Shown here piece by piece: positions 49,659 through 62,039 of a stretch of 64,000 bases of DNA. The stretch's first letter is position 1. Each line of letters starts with the position of its first letter. The stretch covers positions 439,001 to 503,000 of the forward strand of contig NZ_JAFEWC010000003.1 of NCBI RefSeq assembly GCF_017355875.1, given 5' to 3'. The translations under genes and the position numbers were made by a program. The notes below the pieces were generated by a model. The model had not been told where the DNA came from, searched no databases, and worked only from the letters and a program-made list of their open reading frames with translations. The DNA is from Aridibaculum aurantiacum (lineage in GTDB: Bacteria; Bacteroidota; Bacteroidia; Chitinophagales; Chitinophagaceae).

Positions 49659-50144
49659 ATGAATAAGAAACTGGTTTTGATGCTTTTTGTATTTGCTGTT
49701 GCTTCCTGTTCGCAGCAGCAACCGCAGCAAGCTGAGGAAGAGAAGGGGAAGTACAAGTTCATTTATTATCCTAATATGAATATGTATTATGATGTAGCTG
49801 CAGGTCAATACCTCTTTTCCATTGATAGTGCAAGAACCTGGCAAACCATCAATGAACCATCAACGGAGCAGCCGGCTACTTTAGGAGAAGGGAAAGTTAT
49901 TTATACAGACGTAAAGCAGGTTTGGAAAGAAAATGAGGAGCACAGGCAACAGCACGATGGCACTATTTACAATGTTCTTAGTGGAGGAGCGGTAGTAGCT
50001 TCAGCAGCTAATGAAGTAAGTGAAAGGAAAACGCCTAGAAAGACCGTAGCGAAACCAGCACCGGTAGAGGAGCCTAAGAAAAAAGGTTTAGGAAAATTTC
50101 TTAATAACATCTTTGGCAAAAAGAAGAACAAAGATCAGCAATAA
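49659..50144 (+). CDS. Small lipoprotein of unknown function
   Basis: A 161-aa predicted lipoprotein with signal peptide and lipobox KLVLMLFVFAVASC (Cys at residue 17), a Gln-rich linker, a small central domain (KFIYYPNMNMYYDVAAGQYLF, SIDSARTWQTI) and a Lys/Pro-rich basic C-terminus (GLGKFLNNIFGKKKNKD). No family recognised. It lies 105 bases upstream of the Ser/Thr phosphorylation and cell-wall gene cluster on the same strand and could be its first gene. Confidence 0.75.
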   Translation: MNKKLVLMLFVFAVASCSQQQPQQAEEEKGKYKFIYYPNMNMYYDVAAGQYLFSIDSARTWQTINEPSTEQPATLGEGKVIYTDVKQVWKENEEHRQQHDGTIYNVLSGGAVVASAANEVSERKTPRKTVAKPAPVEEPKKKGLGKFLNNIFGKKKNKDQQ

Positions 50145-50249
50145 CAGTAGCAGCAGCCGTCACCATTTGATTTTGAGTTACCTAAATTTGATGGCTCCTG
50201 GGCCTTATCCAATTTCTATCAACCAGCTAACATACAATTACTACTATAC

Positions 50250-51203
50250 ATGAGTTCACAAGGATCTTTTTGGCAACGCATGGGTTTGCATGATTGGTTT
50301 CTGAAAAAAGAAGCCACAGTTACCGTAGTTGAGCCAACCGCCCTTACACCCGATGATGTTTTCAAATACATAGTTGAAAAATTTGAAGAATCAATTGCGC
50401 AGCTATCATTCGGCAATCGCATCGTTTTTTTCCACGAATACATTATCTGCTTCAATCCGGAAGATTACAACCAGTTTATGAATAATAAGAAGGGCATCTT
50501 CGGAATTATTATTCATGAGTCGGTGAAGCGGTTTTATGAGATACTTAATGAGTACAGGCAGCGGGGTAAAACAGTAGAGCCTGCCAGTAACAAGTGGGTG
50601 TTTCGTTTTGTATCGCACCCTGAGTATGCCCGTGGCGATAAGAGTTATATTGGAAAACTTTTACCCGGCACTCCACAACCTAAAGAAGAAAATCTTCGTG
50701 TCACATTTATTCCACGCCAAACAGGTATTGCAGAAGCTTTGGATGTAAATCCGGAGTTGATGGAAGGCTTTACTTACTACAGCGAAGGCTACTATGAAGT
50801 GGAATATAAAGACGATCTGAAACTGGATGATGAGGAGATCACCAGTGGCGAAAAATCTTTGCTTGCTCGTTTTGAAACAGTAGTTCCTGATAAAGAATAC
50901 ATAGGTAAGAAGATAGAATACCTGATGCGCGCCGAGCAGATACTCATAACAGGTAAAGACGACATGGAAGAGGCAGAGGATAAATTTCGCATTCCATCAG
51001 AATGGGTTAGTTCGCCACATCTTTCTGTACGTTTCAATAAAGCAGATGGAAAATTTTACCTGGCTTCTTACGGCGAGAAGACAATGCTGAATGAAAGAGA
51101 GGTGAGGCCAAGTGCCCCTGATTCGCCAAGTTGGGTAGAGTTGCCAGTGAATTCAAAGATCGTATTGAACGGTATTGTAGGAGTAAACATTTTTAAGTCG
51201 TAG
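50250..51203 (+). CDS. FhaA-like protein with degenerate FHA-type C-terminus
   Basis: A 317-aa cytoplasmic protein. The N-terminal part (about residues 30-100) includes FGNRIVFFHEYIICFNPEDYNQF, resembling the N-terminal domain of mycobacterial FhaA (positional pattern hydrophobic-hydrophobic-P/E-D-Y). The C-terminal part (about 220-317) has the strand pattern of an FHA domain (YLMRAEQILITGKDD, SSPHLSVRFNKADGKFYLAS, VNSKIVLNGIVGVNIF), including SxxH-like SSPH. The usual GR motif is missing, so phosphothreonine binding is uncertain. It starts a tight run with the small membrane ORF, PP2C and the RodA-PBP fusion. FhaA relationship is inference from pattern and context. Confidence 0.6.
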   Translation: MSSQGSFWQRMGLHDWFLKKEATVTVVEPTALTPDDVFKYIVEKFEESIAQLSFGNRIVFFHEYIICFNPEDYNQFMNNKKGIFGIIIHESVKRFYEILNEYRQRGKTVEPASNKWVFRFVSHPEYARGDKSYIGKLLPGTPQPKEENLRVTFIPRQTGIAEALDVNPELMEGFTYYSEGYYEVEYKDDLKLDDEEITSGEKSLLARFETVVPDKEYIGKKIEYLMRAEQILITGKDDMEEAEDKFRIPSEWVSSPHLSVRFNKADGKFYLASYGEKTMLNEREVRPSAPDSPSWVELPVNSKIVLNGIVGVNIFKS

Positions 51204-51206
51204 GCA

Positions 51207-51308
51207 ATGATCAATGCAATATTATCTTCTGCTCTGTTTGTTATCTGCCTGCTTTTGCTCATGGCAAATTTCAGGGACATTAAAAAGACACACAACAACA
51301 ACGAATAA
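51207..51308 (+). CDS. 33-aa single-pass membrane peptide
   Basis: ATG at 51207, three bases after the preceding stop. One hydrophobic helix (ILSSALFVICLLLLMA) is followed by a basic/polar tail (NFRDIKKTHNNNE). The stop overlaps the PP2C start as TAATG, so the small ORF is probably translated and coupled to the phosphatase. It may be a small membrane partner of the complex; no homologue is known to me. Tight junctions on both sides (three bases and a one-base overlap) are the main evidence that it is a gene. Confidence 0.65.
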   Translation: MINAILSSALFVICLLLLMANFRDIKKTHNNNE

Positions 51309-52744
51309 TGGCTACAAACTTTTTCGGATTAACGGATGCCGGTAGACAACGAAGCAACAATGAAGATACTTTCATTGCTGAGACATTGAGAAACGGCCGT
51401 TATATAGCTGCATGTGTAATTGATGGTGTGGGTGGATATGAAGGTGGTGAAGTAGCAGCTGAAATAGCAAGAGAAACTATCCTTGATCAGCTGAAACGAA
51501 TTGATAACAGTGGCAACATTGCTGTATCACTTAAAGATGCTGTTGCTGCTGCTAATAAGCAGATATACCAGCAGAAAATAGAGAACAGGCGCAATGGCCA
51601 GATGGCATGTGTGGTAACACTTGCACTCGCCGATATTGAAGAGAATAAATTTTACTATGCACACGTAGGTGATACGCGCCTTTACCTGCTCCGCGACCAG
51701 TCGCTTGTAAAAGTTACCAAGGATCATTCGTTTGTTGGATTTTTAGAAGATAGTGGCCGCTTGAGTGAAGAGGCTGCCATGAAACATCCAAAACGCAACG
51801 AAATAAACAAGGCACTTGGTTTTGATGATATAGCTGGTAATGCAGAATATATAGAAACAGGAGACTCGCCATTTTTACCAGGTGATATTCTACTCCTATG
51901 CAGCGATGGCTTAACCGATATGGTAAGCAATAGCGGTTTAAGAGATGTACTGGTTTCAGGTAAAACAATAGAGAAAAAAGCAGAGACTTTGATAAGTGCT
52001 GCAAACAATGCCGGCGGTAAAGACAATATTACCGTAGTGCTTGTATGGAACGATAAAGAGCCTGTAAAACAAGAAGCCACCAAACCTGCTGTAAGCCTCC
52101 GCCAGGATAATCATGTAAAATCTGAAGGAGTGGCTTTGTCAGCTAAAGAAAACCACGACGACATCAGGCGGCCGGAAGTAAAGAAGAAGGCAAACCCTAC
52201 GGTAAGTATTTTATCCATTTTACTTGTACTGGTAGTGGCGGCCCTTGCATGGCTGCTTTACCGCGATTATGTAAAAGATCAAAATCACCGGCAGGAAGTG
52301 CAGTCGCGTGTTGAGGTAAAACAGCGCAGCGAACAGGAGCAGGCATTTGTAGATAATATAGATGCTACTACCAATGGTGAAGTTTTTCTTGTGACCACAG
52401 CGCCAGGTCAACAACTTGTCATCACTGATTCTATCCTCATTCATAAAGATAGCCTGCACATTATAGGCAATGGGATGACGCTGGTGGCCGATACTTCTTA
52501 TAAAGGTCCAGCATTTATTGTAGCTGCTAACACCCGCTACTTTTTATTAGATAGCATCACACTCCAGGGCTTCGACGTAGGTGTACTGATGAGGTCTCCG
52601 GGCTTACACCTGCAAAACGTGCAGTTCAAAAATTGTAAAGTGCCGGTGGAGTACCAGATGATGTTCCCGGCTAATGCTGTTGTAAACGGCAGGCTGACTG
52701 ATTCTGCATTTCTCTATATAGGTAATACACAAAACAATTATTAG
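51308..52744 (+). CDS. Membrane PP2C-type Ser/Thr phosphatase
   Basis: The 478-aa protein has an N-terminal cytosolic PP2C domain (residues 1-240) with metal-binding motifs NNEDTF, DGVGGYEGGE, SDGLTD and GGKDNITVV. A polar linker follows, then one membrane helix (VSILSILLVLVVAALAWLL, about 299-318) and a 160-residue extracytoplasmic domain with beta-helix character (DSILIHKDSLHIIGNGMTL, LDSITLQGFDVGVL). Topology is like mycobacterial PstP but with a larger external domain. It lies nine bases before the RodA-PBP fusion and upstream of two kinases, so it is the likely antagonist phosphatase (inference). Confidence 0.9.
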   Translation: MATNFFGLTDAGRQRSNNEDTFIAETLRNGRYIAACVIDGVGGYEGGEVAAEIARETILDQLKRIDNSGNIAVSLKDAVAAANKQIYQQKIENRRNGQMACVVTLALADIEENKFYYAHVGDTRLYLLRDQSLVKVTKDHSFVGFLEDSGRLSEEAAMKHPKRNEINKALGFDDIAGNAEYIETGDSPFLPGDILLLCSDGLTDMVSNSGLRDVLVSGKTIEKKAETLISAANNAGGKDNITVVLVWNDKEPVKQEATKPAVSLRQDNHVKSEGVALSAKENHDDIRRPEVKKKANPTVSILSILLVLVVAALAWLLYRDYVKDQNHRQEVQSRVEVKQRSEQEQAFVDNIDATTNGEVFLVTTAPGQQLVITDSILIHKDSLHIIGNGMTLVADTSYKGPAFIVAANTRYFLLDSITLQGFDVGVLMRSPGLHLQNVQFKNCKVPVEYQMMFPANAVVNGRLTDSAFLYIGNTQNNY

Positions 52745-52752
52745 AAACAAGG

Positions 52753-55700
52753 ATGTCGCAGTTTAGAAATCGTTTTTCAGCCCGCAATACAGAGCGGTTG
52801 TTTTTGCTACTCACCAGCGTAGTGTTGGGTTTAATGTTTTACCAGTTGTTCACTGTATTGCAGCGTGATTTTGCCGATGTAGGGAAACGCCTTGCCAATG
52901 GCACCATGATGAACCTGAACGATGAAAAGCCAGGTGAGAAAATGCAGGTGCTGTTAGAGAAAGGTTTCTATTTCCAGGATAAACAAGACATTGACCTGAT
53001 AGCATCTATGGTGAAGAAAGGTGATGCAGCAGAGGACTTAGAAATAGATAATGTAGGAGAGCTGAATAAGAATAAATATGATATAAACGTATCAGAAGCA
53101 TTTACAAAAGGCGGTCAATCTTTTAAGAAGAGGGTAGAGGTGGAGCGCATACTGCTCGGCTTCTCCGACCAGGACTCTACACTCTTTGACCGCGAGGTAC
53201 AGAAAGGGATACAAGTGAATTCCGCTACCAGTGTAGGTATGGGCAACCGCACCATCAGTGGTAGAATAATCAATAAACAGGAAGTTCCTGCAGCAGGTGT
53301 ATTGGTAAGGCTGCAGCTGATACTGCCGCAAGACAGCATTTATAGCGAGGACGTAACAGAAGTAGACAGGGAACAAACGGTAACAGCAGGTGGTGTTCGA
53401 CGCAGTTATGTTTTGGATAGTGCCGGAAACAGGCAACTGCAGGGCGTAATAGCTTATGCACGTACGGATGGTTCAGGGAATTTTTCTTTTACAGGATTGC
53501 AAGCTGATAGAGGTTATAATGTTTTACCACTTCAGCCAGGTTTTGAGTTTGGCCGTTCAAAAGGTGTAGCATCACTCAACAATGATGTGAACTTTGCATT
53601 TGTACAGGCTCCTCATACCATGAAGCTTTTTTCCACGCGTGATTTCAACAACCTGAAAAGAGAAGGTGCTTTGATAGTAAGAACACCAGGTGAAGTGATG
53701 CGCTGGTTTTGGATAATAGTTGGAGTATTCTTTGGCTGCTTCTTTTTATTGCACATCATACTAAGCATCAGGTTTCCGCAGGCTGACCAGTTGCTGTTGC
53801 CTGTACTGATGATTTTGATAGGGCTTTCTTTCATCACTTTGCTTAGCCTGCAAGACCCGCTTCGCGATCGCTTCCTGGCTAAGAACACGCTCTATTATTT
53901 CGGAGGAGGTATAGCCGGCATCATACTAATGCTGCTCTTCAACCTGCGCCAGTTTACCACCGATTCGCTTTTCTACCGTGCATTTGTTTTCAAGGGCAAC
54001 AGGAGGGCCGCCAATGGCTGGCCATGGATATTTGCAGCTTTAGGCTTACTGGTGCTAACGGTGTTCTTCGGTACAGGTCCTGAAGGAAGTGGAGTAAAAG
54101 TAAACTTGTTTGGTTTTCAGCCCAGCGAGATCGTGAAGTTCCTCGTGTTGTTTTTCCTGGCTGGTTATTTTGCTACCAACGAACAATTCATCTCTACCTA
54201 CTCATCGTGGCGTAAACGTTCTTCATTTTTTGCTTTTGCTGTTGCGGCTATACTGGCAGCTATATTTTTATTCCTGATTATTGGTGACTTGGGGCCGGCA
54301 ATGGTAGTCTGCTTTACATTCATAATTCTCTTCTCTTTTTCCCGTGGCGATTTTGTTCCAATGGCTGCGGCAGTTGTGTTATACATCGTCTGTCTCTGGA
54401 TCATCGAAAATGTTTGGATAGCAACAGGTGTAGCAATAGGAGTTATGCTGCTATACATGCTGGTGAAGAAAAAGCAGTTGAGCGAATCTGCTGTTATGGC
54501 TATGGTAGTAATGGCAGGTTTCATGCTGCTCGATAAAGTTCCTTACCTGGAAGAACTCATTCCTGGCCCTATGCAAAGGCTGGTAGACAGGAAAGCAATA
54601 TGGCAGGATGCGTGGGATAATGAAGTGTTTGGTGGTGATCACGTTGCCAATAGTATCTGGGCAATGGCCACAGGTGGTATCACAGGCCAGGGTGCCGGCG
54701 AAGGTTTTGCGAAATCCATCCCGGAAGCTCATACTGATATGATACTGCCTGCTATGGGCGAAGAATTCGGATGGGCTGGTATCATCTGCATTTTCATCAT
54801 CTTTTTAATTTACCTGCACCGGTCAATAGTGATTGGCAGGCACTCCGGGCGGCCATTTCTTTTTTACCTCTGTGCAGGCATAGGCATAGCAACCTTTGTT
54901 CAATTTTTACTGATAGCAGGAGGGTCAACAGGTGCGCTGCCTTTATCGGGTGTGGCGCTTCCATTTATGAGTTATGGCGGGTCGTCGCTGGTGATGAATA
55001 TGCTGGCTGCAGGTTTCCTGCTTTCAGCGTCTAATATAGAGGGCTCACCTGCACAAATGAAATTCATTACACAGCAGCAGGATAGGAACCTGCTTCCTGC
55101 ATTGGTAGCTGCATGTGTAGGGATTGTTCTGCTGAGTGTAAACGTATCGCGTTACCTTTTCAACAACCAGAAGTGGGTGGTGCAACCTTCATTGGTAGCA
55201 GATAGAACAGGAACCAGGATGTTTAGCTACAACCCGCGCATCAGCATCCTGATGAACAAATTGCAGGCAGGCAACCTGCTTGACAGGGATGGTAGAATAC
55301 TTGCAACCAGTAATGCTGAAACCATCAACCAACAACTGGACAGCCTGGTAACGCTGGGTGTACGAAGAGAAGATATTGATGCACTTGCCTATAAACGTCA
55401 AAGCAGGTATTACCCATTTGCAGAGCAAATGTTCTTCTGGACAGGCGATGCCAATACAGGTATTTTCAACGGTAGCTCCAATGGCTACTATGCTGAATAT
55501 GCGCATGCTGCGGAACTACGTGGATTTCCTACACCTACTACCAAGTTCCAGGTAAGTGCCAACAGGTATAGAGAAGATCGCTTCCTGCCACAAACATCTA
55601 CAGAAATGACTGTGGTGAAACGCGATTATAGTGCGCTTGCTCACTTGCTGCTGGCCGGTATCAACAGCCAGCAGGTAGAAGCATTTAAACAAAAAAATCG

Positions 55701-56928
55701 TGATGTACATCTTACGCTTGATGCAGCCCTGCAGGTAGAAATTAACCAGGCACTGGCAGCTGATGATAGTGTAAAGGTGAAACGTGCATCTGTAGTGATA
55801 ATGGATGGCTCTAATGGTGATGTTCTTGCTTCATCTATGTATCCATTGCCACAGATAAATGATTGGGAACGGATGATGCTTTCAACCGTAGAACAAAACA
55901 GGCTGCAGGAATGGATCAGTAACAGCGATATCGGCTTCACACATGCTACCCAGCCGGGTTCTACTGCTAAAGTGCTTACTGCTTTGGCGGCTTTCAACAA
56001 AGTAGGTGACGATGCTGCAAGAAGAACTATACAGGTACGCCCGGCAGATCTTATTCGTGTAGCAGGACCCGAACCTGATGAGGCTGGAAACATCAGCATT
56101 GAGCGCGGCCTGGTACGATCTAATAACTCGTTCTTTATTCGCCTGGCAAATGAGTGGCAGTTGCAGGAGGAGATGGGTAACCTTTACCTGCAAACCGGTA
56201 TGTTCCTGCGTGGTGTGGGAGGATATTATTATGAATTCAACCAGGATAATATAGCGCAGCAGGATAGGTGGCGCGACCTGTGGCGCAGAACAGAATTTGC
56301 TACTGTACAGCGTTACAATCCTAACAATATAAAACCTACACGCGGCCGTGGTGTTTCAGGCATGTCGTGGGGCCAGGGTGAATTGATAGCAACACCTGCT
56401 TCTGTAGCGCGTCTTGCCGCAGGTATATCCAACAATGGAACGATGATGCACAACAGGTACCTGTACAAGGTAAGTGGAGCTGAAACACCCGTTCGTGAAG
56501 GTGTTGCCATTGCTAAATCGCCTTCGTATGCTGGTTTCCTGAAAGATTATATGATAAAGCAAAGTGCAGGAAAAGTGCACCGTACACAAATAGCTGTAGC
56601 CGGTAAAACGGGTACACCTGAGCGTGTGTTCAAAGGCCGCAGGATCAAAGATGGGTGGTATGTTTTCTTCGCTCCTAAAGCCAATGGCACCGGGCATATA
56701 GTAGCGTGTGTACGATTGGAAGACGCAAAAGGATCAAGCGAGGCGGTAAGGCTTGCAGGTCAGACGGTGATACCATTCCTGCTAAAGAGAGGTTATGTAA
56801 AAGGATTTGAAAATGCGGCTAAACCTGCAGCGGTTACTCAGGCGCAAGTGCCAGTTAATAATGGTAATGGTACACAACCTATGGTAGAAGCAGAACCAGC
56901 AGAGCCTGCTGTTGATACTGGCAGGTAG
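52753..56928 (+). CDS. Fusion of SEDS glycosyltransferase (RodA/FtsW) and class B penicillin-binding protein
   Basis: A 1391-aa polytopic membrane protein. Layout: N-terminal helix (about 14-36); extracytoplasmic segment with a CnaB-like beta domain (about 160-270, SGRIINKQEVPAAGVLVRL); SEDS core of about ten helices (about 315-805) with the conserved HTDMILPAMGEEFGWAG block, Asp662 matching the essential SEDS aspartate; and a transpeptidase domain (about 805-1340) with SxxK at S1070-K1073 (STAK), SxN at S1123-N1125 (SNN) and KTGT at 1285-1288. The Pro/Glu tail is low complexity. All catalytic motifs are intact, so it should polymerise and crosslink peptidoglycan. Normally RodA and PBP2 are separate partners. 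It lies between PP2C and FHA genes. Confidence 0.92.
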   Translation: MSQFRNRFSARNTERLFLLLTSVVLGLMFYQLFTVLQRDFADVGKRLANGTMMNLNDEKPGEKMQVLLEKGFYFQDKQDIDLIASMVKKGDAAEDLEIDNVGELNKNKYDINVSEAFTKGGQSFKKRVEVERILLGFSDQDSTLFDREVQKGIQVNSATSVGMGNRTISGRIINKQEVPAAGVLVRLQLILPQDSIYSEDVTEVDREQTVTAGGVRRSYVLDSAGNRQLQGVIAYARTDGSGNFSFTGLQADRGYNVLPLQPGFEFGRSKGVASLNNDVNFAFVQAPHTMKLFSTRDFNNLKREGALIVRTPGEVMRWFWIIVGVFFGCFFLLHIILSIRFPQADQLLLPVLMILIGLSFITLLSLQDPLRDRFLAKNTLYYFGGGIAGIILMLLFNLRQFTTDSLFYRAFVFKGNRRAANGWPWIFAALGLLVLTVFFGTGPEGSGVKVNLFGFQPSEIVKFLVLFFLAGYFATNEQFISTYSSWRKRSSFFAFAVAAILAAIFLFLIIGDLGPAMVVCFTFIILFSFSRGDFVPMAAAVVLYIVCLWIIENVWIATGVAIGVMLLYMLVKKKQLSESAVMAMVVMAGFMLLDKVPYLEELIPGPMQRLVDRKAIWQDAWDNEVFGGDHVANSIWAMATGGITGQGAGEGFAKSIPEAHTDMILPAMGEEFGWAGIICIFIIFLIYLHRSIVIGRHSGRPFLFYLCAGIGIATFVQFLLIAGGSTGALPLSGVALPFMSYGGSSLVMNMLAAGFLLSASNIEGSPAQMKFITQQQDRNLLPALVAACVGIVLLSVNVSRYLFNNQKWVVQPSLVADRTGTRMFSYNPRISILMNKLQAGNLLDRDGRILATSNAETINQQLDSLVTLGVRREDIDALAYKRQSRYYPFAEQMFFWTGDANTGIFNGSSNGYYAEYAHAAELRGFPTPTTKFQVSANRYREDRFLPQTSTEMTVVKRDYSALAHLLLAGINSQQVEAFKQKNRDVHLTLDAALQVEINQALAADDSVKVKRASVVIMDGSNGDVLASSMYPLPQINDWERMMLSTVEQNRLQEWISNSDIGFTHATQPGSTAKVLTALAAFNKVGDDAARRTIQVRPADLIRVAGPEPDEAGNISIERGLVRSNNSFFIRLANEWQLQEEMGNLYLQTGMFLRGVGGYYYEFNQDNIAQQDRWRDLWRRTEFATVQRYNPNNIKPTRGRGVSGMSWGQGELIATPASVARLAAGISNNGTMMHNRYLYKVSGAETPVREGVAIAKSPSYAGFLKDYMIKQSAGKVHRTQIAVAGKTGTPERVFKGRRIKDGWYVFFAPKANGTGHIVACVRLEDAKGSSEAVRLAGQTVIPFLLKRGYVKGFENAAKPAAVTQAQVPVNNGNGTQPMVEAEPAEPAVDTGR

Positions 56929-57003
56929 AAATTATTGGATGAAGGTTTTCAACCTCTTCCTTTTTAAAGATTTACAATTGAAGAAAATAAAATAAAAGCC
57001 CTA

Positions 57004-57795
57004 ATGTTCGATTTTTTTAAAGCAGGAAAACCCACTGATGTAAAAGGTATTCGTAGCGCGATACTCCAGTTCGTAAAAGAACAACTGCAAAAAGCTGAAG
57101 GTGGTGAGGGTAAGAATATAAAAGGACTGTGCTTGTACATTAACTGTAGCACCGAAGAAAAGCATTTGTACGAATCAGCAGTATATGCCGATGAGGATAA
57201 TCGTTTTAAAGAAGACGAGGTACAAAGGATAGCAGATGACTATGCAATTGCGCTTCCTGCTGATTGGACGATGGAAATTATTTTTGAAGAAACGCTGCCA
57301 CAAGAGGCTACCAAAATTCCAACAGTAGATGCTGGATTGTTTGTTTCTACTAAAAGTAAGCGTGCAGTACATAAAGACTCGGAGGCTTATATACAAGTTC
57401 TAAATGGTGAAGCAGAGAAGCCGTATTACAAGCTTACTTCCAACATTGGAAAACTGAATATAGGCCGTGAGAAGAGTGTGCAGACAGCAGATGGATATTT
57501 CAGGAAAAATGATATCGCTTTTCCTACAGACAGCACTCATGAGAGCAACCGTAGCATTAGCCGCCAACATGCACACATAGAATACAATCCTGAAACAGGG
57601 GCATTTTATTTGTTTGCAGATGAAGGTGGGGTGCCACCACTCAACAAGGTAAAGGTGCGTAGCAACGATGGAAACCAGTTTAAGTTACAGACAATGGAGA
57701 TAGGGCATAAACTACAGGAAGGCGACCAGGTGATAATAGGAGAGTCTGCTGTTATAGAGTTTACATATAATCCTCCTACAGGAGAAGAAGGTTAA
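57004..57795 (+). CDS. FHA-domain protein
   Basis: A 263-aa soluble protein with an N-terminal alpha/beta segment (residues 1-120, starts MFDFFKAGKPTDVKGIRSAI) and a C-terminal FHA phosphothreonine-binding domain (about 140-258): LNIGREKSV (GR motif), NRSISRQHAHIEYN (SxxH motif), then LQEGDQVIIGESAVIEF. It lies 75 bases after the RodA-PBP fusion and 118 bases before the first kinase. The likely role is to read kinase phosphorylation and recruit partners at the cell-wall machinery, as proposed for FhaB in actinobacteria (inference). Confidence 0.88.
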   Translation: MFDFFKAGKPTDVKGIRSAILQFVKEQLQKAEGGEGKNIKGLCLYINCSTEEKHLYESAVYADEDNRFKEDEVQRIADDYAIALPADWTMEIIFEETLPQEATKIPTVDAGLFVSTKSKRAVHKDSEAYIQVLNGEAEKPYYKLTSNIGKLNIGREKSVQTADGYFRKNDIAFPTDSTHESNRSISRQHAHIEYNPETGAFYLFADEGGVPPLNKVKVRSNDGNQFKLQTMEIGHKLQEGDQVIIGESAVIEFTYNPPTGEEG

Positions 57796-57913
57796 CTGGC
57801 AATTGAAAGCAGGTTTTAATTTTCTTAAACTAATCGTTCTTCTAACCGTCCTTGAACATTGATAATATCCAATAAAACGACTTATTGAATGATCATTTTT
57901 TACACTTATAGAA

Positions 57914-59608
57914 ATGAGTAAAGTTTTTACCATAACAGATGGGTTGGAAAACCTTGGAGCCATGAAAACAGGCGGCCAGGGATCCGTGTACAAAGGAAAG
58001 AGAACTGGTGAAATTATTACTGCTATTAAATTACTGCCTACTCCCATCTTCAATCCTACTGATGATGACCGCAGTTACCGCGACTTTAAGAATGAAGTAG
58101 ATAAGCTGAAGCGGGTAAATGAAGAACCACATCCAAACGTAGTTACCATACTTAGTTCAGGCGTTTCCGACACTGGCAATTTTCCATTCATAGAAATGGA
58201 ATATATAGAAGGTCCTGACCTGGAAGAGTTGCTGAAGCCACCACACGACCCGCTATTCTGCATAAAGGATGTATGTAAAGTAGCAGAGCATCTTTCTAAT
58301 GCATTGGCGCATTGCCACAAGTATGGTGTAAAACATGGCGACATAAAGAGCAACAATGTAAAGTTCAACATTAACACAGGAAATTTCGTGTTGCTCGATT
58401 TTGGTTTGTCTGTTATGTCTGATGAACAACGTCGGACAAGTCTTCGCAATGCAGGTGCAATAGAATTTATGGCGCCTGAGCAAAATGATGGAGAGATACT
58501 TTTCGCTACTGATGTATACAGCTTTGGTGTAATCATTTTTGAGCTACTGACAGGTCGTGTTCCTTTTCCGCTAAATGATAGAACAGAGTCGGCGCGTAAT
58601 ACCGTTCGACTATCACATATAGAAACTCCTGCACCTGACCTGGTAGAGTTGCGTACGCAAAACATACCAGCTGAGTGGCCGGAGGCGAAGAAAGAACGCG
58701 AACTACATATACCAGAATGGCTGGTGACGATGGTGTACAAATGTCTCGAAAAGAATCCAAAGGAACGTTTTGAAGATGGCGTGCTGCTACACGACTTTAT
58801 AGTCCACGAACGCCATGCAAGCAAAACGGATGAAGTACTTGCATCGCAGCTGGTGGTAATGAAGAAAGTCAACAAGCAACTCACCGACGAAGTAAGCTCG
58901 CTAAAGCAAACAGTGGCGCGGTACGAAAAACAACTGGCAGCCCGCGAACATTCACATAGTGATGCAGCCATTATAGCTCCTGCTCGTGCCAGCGAAGCAA
59001 CCTCCTATAGTTATGAGGGCAACAGCAGCCGCAGCGTATCACGCAGTACGTTTATGGTGGTATTGGTACTGGCTATAGCTTTTGCAGTCATTGCGGCTTA
59101 TTCATTTTTTAGTAAAGGAAATGCAGACACCGTAGCTGCCAGCTATGCAGTAGGTAATGATTCGCTGGATAGTGTACAAGGTGGTGCGCCATTATTTTCA
59201 GAACAAACAGACGATGTGGAGAATAAACCTGTGGAGCAGCTAACGGAAGCAGATGCGGTCCAGGTTACAGAAAGAAAACCTGAAGAAACCAATGTAACGG
59301 TTGTTGATACTTCGCAAGCGCCCGTAGCTGATACCTCTAAAAAAGTAGAAAAGCCTGAGGAGCAAACTGCCAAAGATCAACAAGATAAACCAGCAGGACC
59401 AGGCACTCGCTATAGGGTTGCTGCCAAAGCATATTTTCACAGCAAAGCCGATGAAAGCAGCCGTACCAATGAATTTATAATTCCAGGAAATGTTATTGTA
59501 AGAGCTATAGAAGATAAAGGAGAATTTATATTGGTGAATTTTAAAGACGACCAGGGAGAGACCACAACAGGGTGGATACGAAAGAAAGACCTGGCAAGGG
59601 CAAATTAA
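57914..59608 (+). CDS. Transmembrane Ser/Thr protein kinase with extracytoplasmic SH3-like domain
   Basis: A 564-aa Hanks-type kinase. Cytosolic kinase domain residues 1-300: glycine loop KTGGQGSVYKG (18-28), ATP lysine K39, catalytic HGD at 141-143 with N148, DFG at 162-164, APE at 187-189. HGD instead of HRD makes it a non-RD kinase. The juxtamembrane region has a short coiled coil (VNKQLTDEVSSLKQTVARYE). One membrane helix (about 380-400), an acidic Thr/Glu-rich linker and an SH3b-like domain (about 497-564, AKAYFHSKADESSRTNEFI...TTGWIRKKDLA) complete it. No PASTA repeats. Paralogue of the next gene. Confidence 0.92.
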   Translation: MSKVFTITDGLENLGAMKTGGQGSVYKGKRTGEIITAIKLLPTPIFNPTDDDRSYRDFKNEVDKLKRVNEEPHPNVVTILSSGVSDTGNFPFIEMEYIEGPDLEELLKPPHDPLFCIKDVCKVAEHLSNALAHCHKYGVKHGDIKSNNVKFNINTGNFVLLDFGLSVMSDEQRRTSLRNAGAIEFMAPEQNDGEILFATDVYSFGVIIFELLTGRVPFPLNDRTESARNTVRLSHIETPAPDLVELRTQNIPAEWPEAKKERELHIPEWLVTMVYKCLEKNPKERFEDGVLLHDFIVHERHASKTDEVLASQLVVMKKVNKQLTDEVSSLKQTVARYEKQLAAREHSHSDAAIIAPARASEATSYSYEGNSSRSVSRSTFMVVLVLAIAFAVIAAYSFFSKGNADTVAASYAVGNDSLDSVQGGAPLFSEQTDDVENKPVEQLTEADAVQVTERKPEETNVTVVDTSQAPVADTSKKVEKPEEQTAKDQQDKPAGPGTRYRVAAKAYFHSKADESSRTNEFIIPGNVIVRAIEDKGEFILVNFKDDQGETTTGWIRKKDLARAN

Positions 59609-59693
59609 CAAGCCTCACATAGAACAATCAAGTAAATTGGCGCGTTGTAACCAGTTTGCTGTACTTACAGGTGATACCACTGCAATTGCATTG

Positions 59694-59739
59694 TTCAGAA
59701 GAATTAAATTCACCACTTCCAGCAAACGGTTCTTCTGAA
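59694..59739 (+). repeat. Inverted repeat in front of second kinase gene
   Basis: TTCAGAAGAA (59694-59703) and TTCTTCTGAA (59730-59739) are a perfect 10-bp inverted repeat with a 26-base loop, ending nine bases before the ATG of the second kinase. In mRNA it would form a hairpin directly over the ribosome-binding region and could lower or regulate its translation relative to the first kinase (inference). No U-tract follows. Confidence 0.55.
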
Positions 59740-59748
59740 TAATTTATC

Positions 59749-61683
59749 ATGAGTAGAGTTTTTACTATTACTGCAGGACTTGAAAACATGGGCGCCATGA
59801 AAACTGGTGGCCAGGGTTCGGTGTATAAAGGAAAAAGGATCGGTGAGATCATCACTGCCATCAAGTTATTGCCTACACCCATCCATAGTGAGAGCGATGC
59901 CGATAAAAATTTTATTGCATTTACCAACGAAGTAGAAAAGCTGAAAAAGGTAAATGAAAAGCCCAATCCTAATGTTGTAAAGATCCTTAGCTCAGGGATA
60001 ACTGATACCGGCAATCTTCCATTTATAGAAATGGAGTACATAGAAGGCCCTGACCTGGAAGAACTGCTGCAGCCTCCGCACGAGCCTTTATTTACTATAA
60101 AAGAAGTAGTAAAAGTTGCCAATCATCTTTCTAATGCTTTGGCCCATTGTCATAAGATCGGCATTAAGCATGGTGACATTAAGAGCAACAACGTGAAATA
60201 TAATATTCACACAGGCAATTACATGTTGCTGGATTTTGGTCTTGCTGTCATGAGTGATGAACAAAGAAGAACAAGTCTTCGTCATGCAGGTGCTATCGAG
60301 TTTATGGCTCCTGAGCAGGCAGAAGGAACAACGCTTTTTGAAACAGATGTTTACAGCTTTGGAGTCATCCTGTTCGAATTGCTGGCAGGCACTGTTCCTT
60401 TTCCATTAAAAGATAAGAGTGAAACATCGCGCAACCAGGTAATGGTGGCGCACTTAGAAACAGCTCCTCCTGATATGCTGCAGCTGCGTAAGCAGGCACT
60501 TCCGGCAGCGTGGAGCGATGAAAAGAAGGTGCAGGAAATGCAGGTGCCGGCATGGCTTGTAAATATGATCTATCGGTGCCTGGAGAAAAAGCCACAGCAG
60601 CGGTTTGAGAATGGCGATGTGCTTCATGATTTCATTTGGCATAACCTGGGAGGCTCTACCAGCCTGGCTGTTGTAGGTGCTAATGCAGATGCTTTGGCAC
60701 AGGAAAACCGCCGTTTGCGCCATGAGAATGAACAGCTGCAACTTCAATTGAAAAAATTGCAGCAGGAAAAGGCTTCCACTGCAATCGTTTCCTCTGCTGC
60801 TGCACCCACTACTTTACAAGGTTCTGAGAATTCAGATTATTATACTGCATACCGCTCTAAAAAATCATCCTCCGGTACATGGCTGTTTGCGCTATTGGTG
60901 CTTGCAGGACTTGCAGTTGCCGTGTATTTTATCTTCTTTAAAGAAAAAGAATTGCCTTTGGCTGAAAGGACACCTGCTACAACAAGCAGTGGTAAGGCGC
61001 TGGTAGCAGAATATAAAGTGGTAGTTCCTCGTGCTTATTTTCACGATCAGCCAGATGAAACAACCCGTCGTAATGCATGGGCTATTCCTTCGGATTCTAC
61101 CATCAAAGCTTTAGACGAACGAAATGGATTTATCTATACAGAGATCACCAACCATAGAAACCAGGTTTCCAAAGGTTGGCTGAGAAAGGAAGATCTGAAA
61201 ACTGTCCAGGAGGCAGGTCGGACTACTTCGCCGCCGCCTGCCAATAATGCCAATACTACACCGGCGCTTAATGATGAAGACGTGAAGGCGCAACTGCGCA
61301 CCGCACAGCAGCTCATCAATAGCAGCAAAGTGCAGGAGGCGCTTCCAATATATGAGAACCTGTTGCAGGAAAATGTACCAGAAGCCATGTATCACTACGC
61401 TGATCTTGCATTGCGCAACGAAAACAAAAGGATCGATTGTAAATCTGCTTTTGAACTGCTGCAGAAAGCTAGCAATGCAGGACATACAGTGGCTAAGCGC
61501 ACTTTGGGTTTTCTATACGTTTTTGCTGAAGACCGTTACATACTTGAAGAAAACAATTACTATGCACGTTGTACTTTTTCAAAAAATCTTCCAAAAGGTT
61601 CTAAACTATTAGTAGAGGCTATGGTAGCAGGCGATTCGCTGGCTGCACGTTATGTGCGCGATCTGAATGCTGCCGAGCAATAA
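59749..61683 (+). CDS. Transmembrane Ser/Thr protein kinase with SH3-like and Sel1/TPR-like domains
   Basis: A 644-aa paralogue of the preceding kinase with near-identical motifs: KTGGQGSVYKG, AIK lysine 39, HGDIKSNNV (non-RD), LDFGLAV and APEQ. A short coiled coil (ENRRLRHENEQLQLQLKKLQ) precedes the membrane helix (about 376-398). Outside follow an SH3b-like domain (about 424-485, PRAYFHDQPDETTRRNAW...SKGWLRKEDL) and a Sel1/TPR-like helical region (about 508-644, EALPIYENLLQENVPEAMYHYADLAL, AFELLQKASNAGHTVAKRTLG). The external half differs from its neighbour, suggesting duplication followed by sensor diversification. Translation may be affected by the hairpin at 59694-59739. Confidence 0.92.
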   Translation: MSRVFTITAGLENMGAMKTGGQGSVYKGKRIGEIITAIKLLPTPIHSESDADKNFIAFTNEVEKLKKVNEKPNPNVVKILSSGITDTGNLPFIEMEYIEGPDLEELLQPPHEPLFTIKEVVKVANHLSNALAHCHKIGIKHGDIKSNNVKYNIHTGNYMLLDFGLAVMSDEQRRTSLRHAGAIEFMAPEQAEGTTLFETDVYSFGVILFELLAGTVPFPLKDKSETSRNQVMVAHLETAPPDMLQLRKQALPAAWSDEKKVQEMQVPAWLVNMIYRCLEKKPQQRFENGDVLHDFIWHNLGGSTSLAVVGANADALAQENRRLRHENEQLQLQLKKLQQEKASTAIVSSAAAPTTLQGSENSDYYTAYRSKKSSSGTWLFALLVLAGLAVAVYFIFFKEKELPLAERTPATTSSGKALVAEYKVVVPRAYFHDQPDETTRRNAWAIPSDSTIKALDERNGFIYTEITNHRNQVSKGWLRKEDLKTVQEAGRTTSPPPANNANTTPALNDEDVKAQLRTAQQLINSSKVQEALPIYENLLQENVPEAMYHYADLALRNENKRIDCKSAFELLQKASNAGHTVAKRTLGFLYVFAEDRYILEENNYYARCTFSKNLPKGSKLLVEAMVAGDSLAARYVRDLNAAEQ

Positions 61684-61757: not shown

Positions 61758-62039
61758 ATGAGATCAGCAGAGGAATGTCCATTGTGCAAAAGACCATTAG
61801 CAGAGCCAGCCAACAAGCACCACCTGATGCCGTTGAGCAAAGGCGGGAAGAACACGCCTACCATTCTTCTTCATAAAATCTGCCACGATAAGATCCATGC
61901 CGTTTTTGCTGAAATAGAACTGAAGCGCTATTACCACACAATCGATCGCCTGCTGGAACATGATGAGATAAAGAAGTTTGTACGCTGGCTGCAGAAAAAA
62001 GAACCAGGTTATTATGATAAAAGTGTAAAGCAGCGATAG
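61758..62039 (+). CDS. Small HNH-family protein
   Basis: A 93-aa protein with a zinc-type CPLC pair near residue 8, an HNH core (NKHHLMPLSKGGKN, then LLHKICHDKIHAVF) and a helical C-terminus. The motif order C-x2-C, HH, N, C-H-x3-H fits HNH nucleases. It is a standalone domain without recognisable DNA-binding additions. It lies 74 bases after the second kinase, before a repeat-bearing spacer and tgt. Activity unknown; structural zinc-binding protein is an alternative. Confidence 0.8.
   Translation: MRSAEECPLCKRPLAEPANKHHLMPLSKGGKNTPTILLHKICHDKIHAVFAEIELKRYYHTIDRLLEHDEIKKFVRWLQKKEPGYYDKSVKQR

What the first reader, a model, noticed from the sequence alone, without database searches (positions are those of the whole stretch)
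49659..61683. Actinobacterial-style Ser/Thr phosphorylation and cell-wall locus in a Bacteroidota genome
Seen: a same-strand run of an FhaA-like protein, a 33-aa membrane peptide, membrane PP2C, a RodA-PBP fusion, an FHA protein and two membrane Ser/Thr kinases, with short spacers or overlaps. Established: Mycobacterium carries fhaA-fhaB-pstP-rodA-pbpA-pknA-pknB, where kinases and phosphatase tune SEDS/PBP wall synthesis. Inference: the order here is nearly collinear with that locus, so an analogous phospho-control of peptidoglycan synthesis may exist. The parts differ: rodA-pbpA are fused, SH3-like and Sel1-like sensors replace PASTA, and the FHA gene has moved. This could be convergent assembly or ancient transfer followed by remodelling.
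Basis: partly seen in the sequence, partly recalled or inferred. Interest (0 to 1): 0.88.

Follow-up and report, generated by a model that had tools for sequence, protein, structure and literature searches.

The report
Phospho-controlled cell-wall synthase gene cassette
Some Bacteroidota carry a set of neighbouring genes that seems to join a one-piece cell-wall-building enzyme to its own kinases, phosphatase, reader proteins and a tiny overlooked membrane peptide, much like a control unit known from actinobacteria, which could make kinase control of wall building testable in harmless soil bacteria.

Summary
The locus is real and conserved. Order: FhaA-like, 33-aa membrane peptide, membrane PP2C, SEDS-transpeptidase fusion, FHA protein, two membrane kinases. 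All 79 complete distinct loci fetched by the fusion hold FhaA-like, PP2C, fusion, FHA and at least one kinase. Carriers are patchy (7 of 198 genomes of the order, 11 of 396 of the class, own genome included). The window's genome has separate FtsW and RodA, while its only Pkinase, PF00498 FHA and NF033484 PP2C matches lie in this cassette. The peptide is a coding microprotein (90 of 91 loci; dN/dS 0.23). The SEDS domain groups with actinobacterial RodA (100/97); Bacteroidota RodA and FtsW are rejected, Firmicutes not. Transpeptidase and PP2C trees are unresolved; the kinases fall outside the PknA/PknB clade. SH3/Sel1 sensors and an FhaA_N domain are not shown. Best reading: a self-contained phospho-regulated third peptidoglycan synthase, a new variant of the actinobacterial pstP-rodA-pbpA-pknB arrangement. 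Function and phospho-control are inferred.

The parts
49659..50144 (+). small lipoprotein-like gene (161 aa), possible accessory
   Evidence: relatives beside the cassette in 4 of 16 loci; no meaningful Pfam hit
50250..51203 (+). FhaA-like protein (317 aa): N-terminal domain of unclear kinship and C-terminal FHA fold; lacks the FHA Arg in this lineage
   Evidence: model and Foldseek FHA hits, best E 2.4e-6; Arg in 5 of 16 relatives; no PF12401 match in the genome at E<=10
51207..51308 (+). 33-aa single-TM microprotein with motif [HN]F-x-[DE]-[IL]
   Evidence: 90 of 91 loci; dN/dS 0.227 against 0.836 and 2.057 in the other frames
51308..52744 (+). membrane PP2C phosphatase (478 aa), one TM near 299-317, beta-rich C-terminal outer part
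   Evidence: (PstP 1txo E 1.4e-23)
52753..56928 (+). SEDS glycosyltransferase - class B type transpeptidase fusion (1391 aa) with an extra N-terminal TM and a long insert before the SEDS helices
57004..57795 (+). FHA protein (FHA2, 263 aa) with canonical GR, SR and H residues
   Evidence: 16 of 16 relatives match PF00498; residues
57914..59608 (+). membrane Ser/Thr kinase 1 (564 aa), HGD variant, TM near 380-398
59749..61683 (+). membrane Ser/Thr kinase 2 (644 aa), HGD variant, TM near 379-397

Best explanation
A self-contained, phospho-regulated peptidoglycan synthase cassette. The fusion polymerises lipid II with its SEDS half and cross-links with its transpeptidase half, as a third machine beside FtsW-FtsI and RodA-PBP2. 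Two membrane kinases with outer domains, opposed by a membrane PP2C, set the phosphorylation of cytosolic targets; the FHA protein reads phosphothreonine and holds or releases the synthase complex; the FhaA-like protein, whose FHA has lost its Arg in this lineage, acts mainly as a scaffold; the coupled microprotein is a small membrane subunit of the PP2C or the synthase. The SEDS domain shares ancestry with actinobacterial RodA of the pstP-rodA-pbpA-pknA-pknB locus, while the kinases were recruited separately. Shown: gene order, conservation, domains, intact catalytic residues, the sole-kinase status in this genome, the SEDS grouping. Inferred: enzymatic activity, signal, targets, and that phosphorylation controls the synthase.
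For: Gene set in 79 of 79 complete distinct loci. SEDS HTD and transpeptidase SxxK, SxN, KTG invariant in 15 of 15; PP2C acidic residues in 16 of 16; kinase H, D, N, DFG in 31 of 31; FHA2 GR, SR, H in 16 of 16. Own genome: the only PF00069, PF00498 and NF033484 matches are in the cassette, and FtsW and RodA are separate. All kinases inside the cassette in 8 of 15 carriers. SEDS with actinobacterial RodA 100/97. Precedent: in mycobacteria pstP is cotranscribed with rodA and pbpA (PMC6554272, passages).
Against: No biochemical evidence. 7 of 15 carriers have further kinases elsewhere. Transpeptidase and PP2C trees do not resolve their origin. In the first SEDS tree test FtsW and Firmicutes groupings were not rejected (p 0.115 and 0.26). 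FhaA_N resemblance is faint. The kinases score higher with PADLOC PD-T4-6 models than with the PASTA kinase model. Genomes without the cassette are the great majority of those searched, so it is not essential to the group.
Confidence: 0.55

Rival explanations
1. Convergent assembly: common signalling genes gathered around a divergent SEDS-PBP fusion inside Bacteroidota, with no shared origin with the actinobacterial locus; the SEDS grouping is then a long-branch or sampling effect. The working would be much the same.
For: Kinases are a different lineage; FhaB, a separate PbpA and PASTA kinases are missing; only four actinobacterial RodA rows, long branches, Firmicutes grouping not rejected; transpeptidase unresolved.
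Against: SEDS grouping 99/97 and 100/97 in two row sets, stronger after a fourth RodA came in and three long rows went out; shared order PP2C-SEDS-transpeptidase behind an FHA gene.
Confidence: 0.3
2. A stress-signalling module whose main output is not the fusion, for example other envelope or polysaccharide enzymes; the fusion is one client among several.
For: Kinase number and place vary (1 in 27, 2 in 46, 3 in 6 of 79 loci); mycobacterial PstP and PknB have several targets (PMC6554272, passages).
Against: The fusion lies between the signalling genes, in the order FhaA-PP2C-fusion-FHA, in most complete loci (74 of 79 with PP2C next to the fusion).
Confidence: 0.15
3. An anti-phage defence cassette with a kinase of the PD-T4-6 kind.
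For: Both kinases match PADLOC PD-T4-6 models (1.9e-42 and 8.3e-42) and mad6 (2.1e-39 and 6.5e-40); patchy distribution; a plasmid copy.
Against: The matched models share a general kinase domain; the fusion and both FHA proteins match no PADLOC model at E<=1e-5 and PP2C only PDC-M21C at 2e-6; SEDS and transpeptidase active sites are intact.
Confidence: 0.06

Closest known systems
Actinobacterial fhaA-fhaB-pstP-rodA-pbpA-pknA-pknB locus
   Same: FHA gene first, then membrane PP2C, SEDS, transpeptidase, kinases; SEDS domain groups with its RodA
   Different: rodA and pbpA fused; no FhaB but a microprotein in its place and an FHA gene downstream of the fusion; no PASTA kinases, kinases of another lineage; FhaA_N not shown; accessory, beside a full FtsW and RodA set
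Firmicutes Stp1-PrkC type PP2C and PASTA kinase pair
   Same: PP2C beside a membrane kinase
   Different: no FHA, SEDS or PBP gene beside them in the three annotated loci seen; PASTA kinases
RodA-PBP2 and FtsW-FtsI pairs of the same genome
   Same: SEDS plus transpeptidase
   Different: separate proteins; the cassette SEDS is rejected as their close kin; no kinase or FHA circuit
PD-T4-6 and MAD6 defence kinases
   Same: kinase domain
   Different: no synthase, phosphatase or FHA set among the matched models

Membership tests
Actinobacterial pstP-rodA-pbpA-pknB locus | FhaA with FhaA_N (PF12401) and FHA domains | tested here: inconclusive
   FHA fold supported; PF12401 absent at E<=10 in the genome and not among matches at E<=1 in 16 relatives; hhalign score 20.6 against 17.2 (best of 60 shuffles) and 17.4 (reversed), probability 4%
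Actinobacterial pstP-rodA-pbpA-pknB locus | FhaB (TM plus FHA) between fhaA and pstP | tested here: not met
   a 33-aa peptide without FHA stands there; kinship with the FhaB anchor unsupported
Actinobacterial pstP-rodA-pbpA-pknB locus | membrane PP2C of the PstP clade | tested here: inconclusive
   PP2C with one TM; tree unresolved, grouping with actinobacteria not rejected, p 0.427
Actinobacterial pstP-rodA-pbpA-pknB locus | SEDS of the RodA clade of that locus | tested here: met
   100/97 with four actinobacterial RodA rows; Firmicutes grouping not rejected, p 0.125
Actinobacterial pstP-rodA-pbpA-pknB locus | separate pbpA gene after rodA | tested here: not met
   fused in one frame; transpeptidase origin unresolved
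Actinobacterial pstP-rodA-pbpA-pknB locus | PknA and PknB with PASTA sensor | tested here: not met
   kinases outside the PknA/PknB/Firmicutes clade; no PASTA match in the tables shown
SEDS glycosyltransferases (PF01098) | family profile over cut-off and catalytic Asp | tested here: met
   155 bits against 26.4; HTD in 15 of 15; the role of this Asp is recalled
SEDS glycosyltransferases (PF01098) | lipid II polymerisation | not testable with these tools
   no assay
Penicillin-binding transpeptidases (PF00905) | profile over cut-off and SxxK, SxN, KTG | tested here: met
   63.4 bits against 22.1; motifs in 15 of 15; motif names recalled
PD-T4-6 anti-phage kinase | defence function of the kinase | not testable with these tools
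   only kinase-domain similarity seen

The most novel reading that the evidence does not exclude
An autonomous, transferable third peptidoglycan synthase in a Gram-negative phylum, with its own private Ser/Thr phosphorylation circuit and a previously unrecognised ~30-aa membrane subunit, whose synthase core descends from the same ancestor as the actinobacterial phospho-controlled elongation locus.
Probability: 0.35. Interest if true: 0.87.

Novelty: new variant of a known kind. Interest (0 to 1): 0.74.

Why it matters
Kinase control of wall synthesis is best known (recalled) from Gram-positive and actinobacterial species, where many kinases and targets blur cause and effect. Here the window's genome seems to hold its whole Hanks kinase, Stp1-type PP2C and canonical FHA set next to one covalently paired SEDS-transpeptidase, so the question becomes testable in harmless soil bacteria. 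The fusion is a ready-made object for studying SEDS-PBP coupling, and the microprotein is a new candidate small regulator.

Tried and rejected
SH3-like kinase sensors: a profile of 14 tails found nothing better than E 0.39 in PDB sequences, and no SH3 family was among those shown by Pfam. Left as unproven, not disproved.

Microprotein as a remnant of FhaB's membrane anchor: hhalign 11.65 against 6.9-15.5 for other TM segments and 10.6 for the reversed control. Rejected as unsupported.

Cassette SEDS as kin of Bacteroidota RodA or FtsW: rejected (p 0.0008 and 0.008). With three actinobacterial rows and three long rows still in, p was 0.020 and 0.115. Two rows that I had labelled FtsW (L132, L137) fell among RodA in the first tree and were counted as RodA in these tests, so the groups were not wholly fixed beforehand.

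Intermediates beside other Bacteroidota PP2C genes: 12 stretches read, none with a SEDS-transpeptidase gene; one weak SEDS-profile score (L231, E 0.005) was not followed.

Defence reading: kinase-domain hits only.

Literature: ten searches answered. I saw their listings, and passages of PMC12088040 and PMC6554272. No listed title or abstract described this cassette, the natural fusion or the microprotein; the library lacks most subscription papers, so this is no proof of absence.

Rows dropped before counts: 3 duplicate loci of 97, and 15 partial loci counted apart; L220, L221, L222 (long branches) left out; L029; L126, L198, L199; in the 1391-aa and SEDS sets I used 18 of 94 distinct cassettes and a hand-picked part of the fetched references. 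Of 331 relatives only the best 80 were kept by the tool.
Full report
What is there. The window carries eight same-strand genes at 49659-61683: a small lipoprotein-like gene, an FhaA-like protein, a 33-aa peptide, a membrane PP2C, a 1391-aa SEDS-transpeptidase fusion, an FHA protein and two membrane kinases. FhaA-like and peptide are 3 bases apart, peptide and PP2C share one base, PP2C and fusion are 8 bases apart; the later gaps are 75, 118 and 140 bases. Pfam supports PP2C, SEDS, transpeptidase, FHA and both kinases. The FhaA-like protein has no meaningful Pfam hit, but its model (mean pLDDT 71.5) matches FHA domains (best E 2.4e-6; the FHA domain of mycobacterial FhaA, 2lc1, at 7.3e-6, of which 50 rows were shown, all of them FHA-like by name or entry).

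Conservation. The fusion was found in 7 of 198 genomes of the order and 11 of 396 of the class, own genome included (only the two or three best candidates per genome were scored, and the samples overlap). A scan of genome contigs found 331 relatives; the best 80 were kept, in Segetibacter, Ferruginibacter, Flavisolibacter, Mucilaginibacter, Pedobacter and other genera. Of 97 loci, 94 are distinct and 79 of these complete; all 79 have FhaA-like, PP2C, FHA and one to three kinases. FhaA-PP2C are adjacent in 79, PP2C-fusion in 74 (kinases between them in 5), fusion-FHA in 77. The loci were chosen by the fusion alone, but the profiles used for the count were built from 15-31 sequences of 16 or 17 of these loci. 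A Spirosoma plasmid has the set. A locus of the window's own family (L028) groups with the Spirosoma type in the SEDS tree (100/99), which suggests transfer between families.

A self-contained circuit. The window's genome (100% complete by the tool's estimate, 5 contigs) has two other full SEDS genes with large PBP genes in the same stretches; their FtsW and RodA names are mine, from that context and from their places. Its only PF00069 matches (E<=0.001) are the two cassette kinases, its only PF00498 match (E<=0.01) the cassette FHA protein, its only NF033484 match (E<=1e-15) the cassette PP2C. Of 15 carriers, 8 have all their PF00069 matches inside the cassette stretch; the other 7 have further ones elsewhere. 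Of 20 non-carriers of the family, 10 have no match at E<=1e-8.

Active sites. SEDS HTD and transpeptidase SxxK, SxN and KTG are invariant in 15 of 15; the PP2C acidic residues in 16 of 16; kinase H, D, N and DFG in 31 of 31 and the ATP Lys in 30 (one gap); FHA2's GR, SR and H in 16 of 16 and its Asn in 15. In the FhaA-like protein the Arg is present in 5 of 16, not in the window. HGD replaces HRD in 140 of 150 kinases in which the motif was found, of 152 examined, duplicates included; an activation segment RR-[TS]-S-x-R stands in 138 of 152.

The microprotein. A one-TM ORF of 23-36 aa with [HN]F-x-[DE]-[IL] or close to it stands before the PP2C in 90 of 91 loci (duplicates not removed); L029 has only a shorter candidate without the motif. 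dN/dS is 0.227, against 0.836 and 2.057 in the other two frames, with the last three codons left out because they can overlap PP2C (47 distinct sequences of the 32-aa class, 449 usable pairs). In the window its stop shares a base with the PP2C start; in at least 59 of 90 loci the last nine bases hold an out-of-frame ATG, which fits coupled translation. No feature is listed there in the Spirosoma plasmid table, which is known to be incomplete.

Ancestry. Actinobacterial loci were fetched from records filed as plasmids. The SEDS domains of the cassette and actinobacterial RodA form one side of a branch: 99/97 with three RodA rows, 100/97 with four and three long rows left out. Grouping with Bacteroidota RodA or FtsW is rejected (p 0.0008, 0.008), less clearly (p 0.020, 0.115); grouping with Firmicutes is not rejected (p 0.125 and 0.26). 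Few actinobacterial rows and long branches make this good but not final evidence. The transpeptidase and PP2C are unresolved. PknA, PknB and Firmicutes PASTA kinases form a clade (100/98) without the cassette kinases, in a tree with long-branch warnings. The FhaA-like N-terminal domain shows a faint collinear resemblance to actinobacterial FhaA_N (score 20.6; best of 60 shuffles 17.2; reversed 17.4; probability 4%), short of proof.

How it most likely works. The kinases sense something beyond the inner membrane, the PP2C resets them, FHA2 reads phosphothreonine, and the output is the activity or placement of the fusion, a third wall synthase. This rests on the actinobacterial precedent (PMC6554272, passages) and on the isolation of the circuit; signal, targets and activity are inference. 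The insert of the fusion before its SEDS helices (a CarboxypepD_reg match below cut-off) and the beta-rich outer part of the PP2C (strands at 369-449) are candidate sensors, untested.

Verdict. A real and conserved cassette that I did not find described in ten literature searches (named in Tried and rejected), best filed as a new variant of phospho-controlled SEDS-PBP loci. It is not a plain member of the actinobacterial locus family, because FhaB, a separate PbpA and PknA/PknB kinases were tested and not met; that lowers the claim of membership, not the claim that it works alike.

Noticed in passing
window 61758-62039: Small HNH protein right after kinase 2 (PF01844 26.6 bits, over cut-off; NF058586 HlpB-like 59.3 bits, below its cut-off of 130).
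   Followed up: no
L237 9487-15008 and L238 9451-15779: Other Bacteroidota genomes have PP2C genes beside two kinase genes with no SEDS or transpeptidase match near, so PP2C-kinase clusters of another kind exist in the class.
   Followed up: partly
L122 13651-15082: In an Arthrobacter record the rodA gene of the pstP locus reads as two overlapping frames, a real break or a sequencing error.
   Followed up: no
L039: The fusion reads as two ORFs in this metagenome contig.
   Followed up: no
window 57914-61683 and relatives: Cassette kinases mostly carry HGD in place of HRD (140 of 150 motifs found), an unusual catalytic loop.
   Followed up: partly
L023 13305-18658: A same-genus relative has three kinases in tandem after the FHA gene, where the window has two.
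   Followed up: partly
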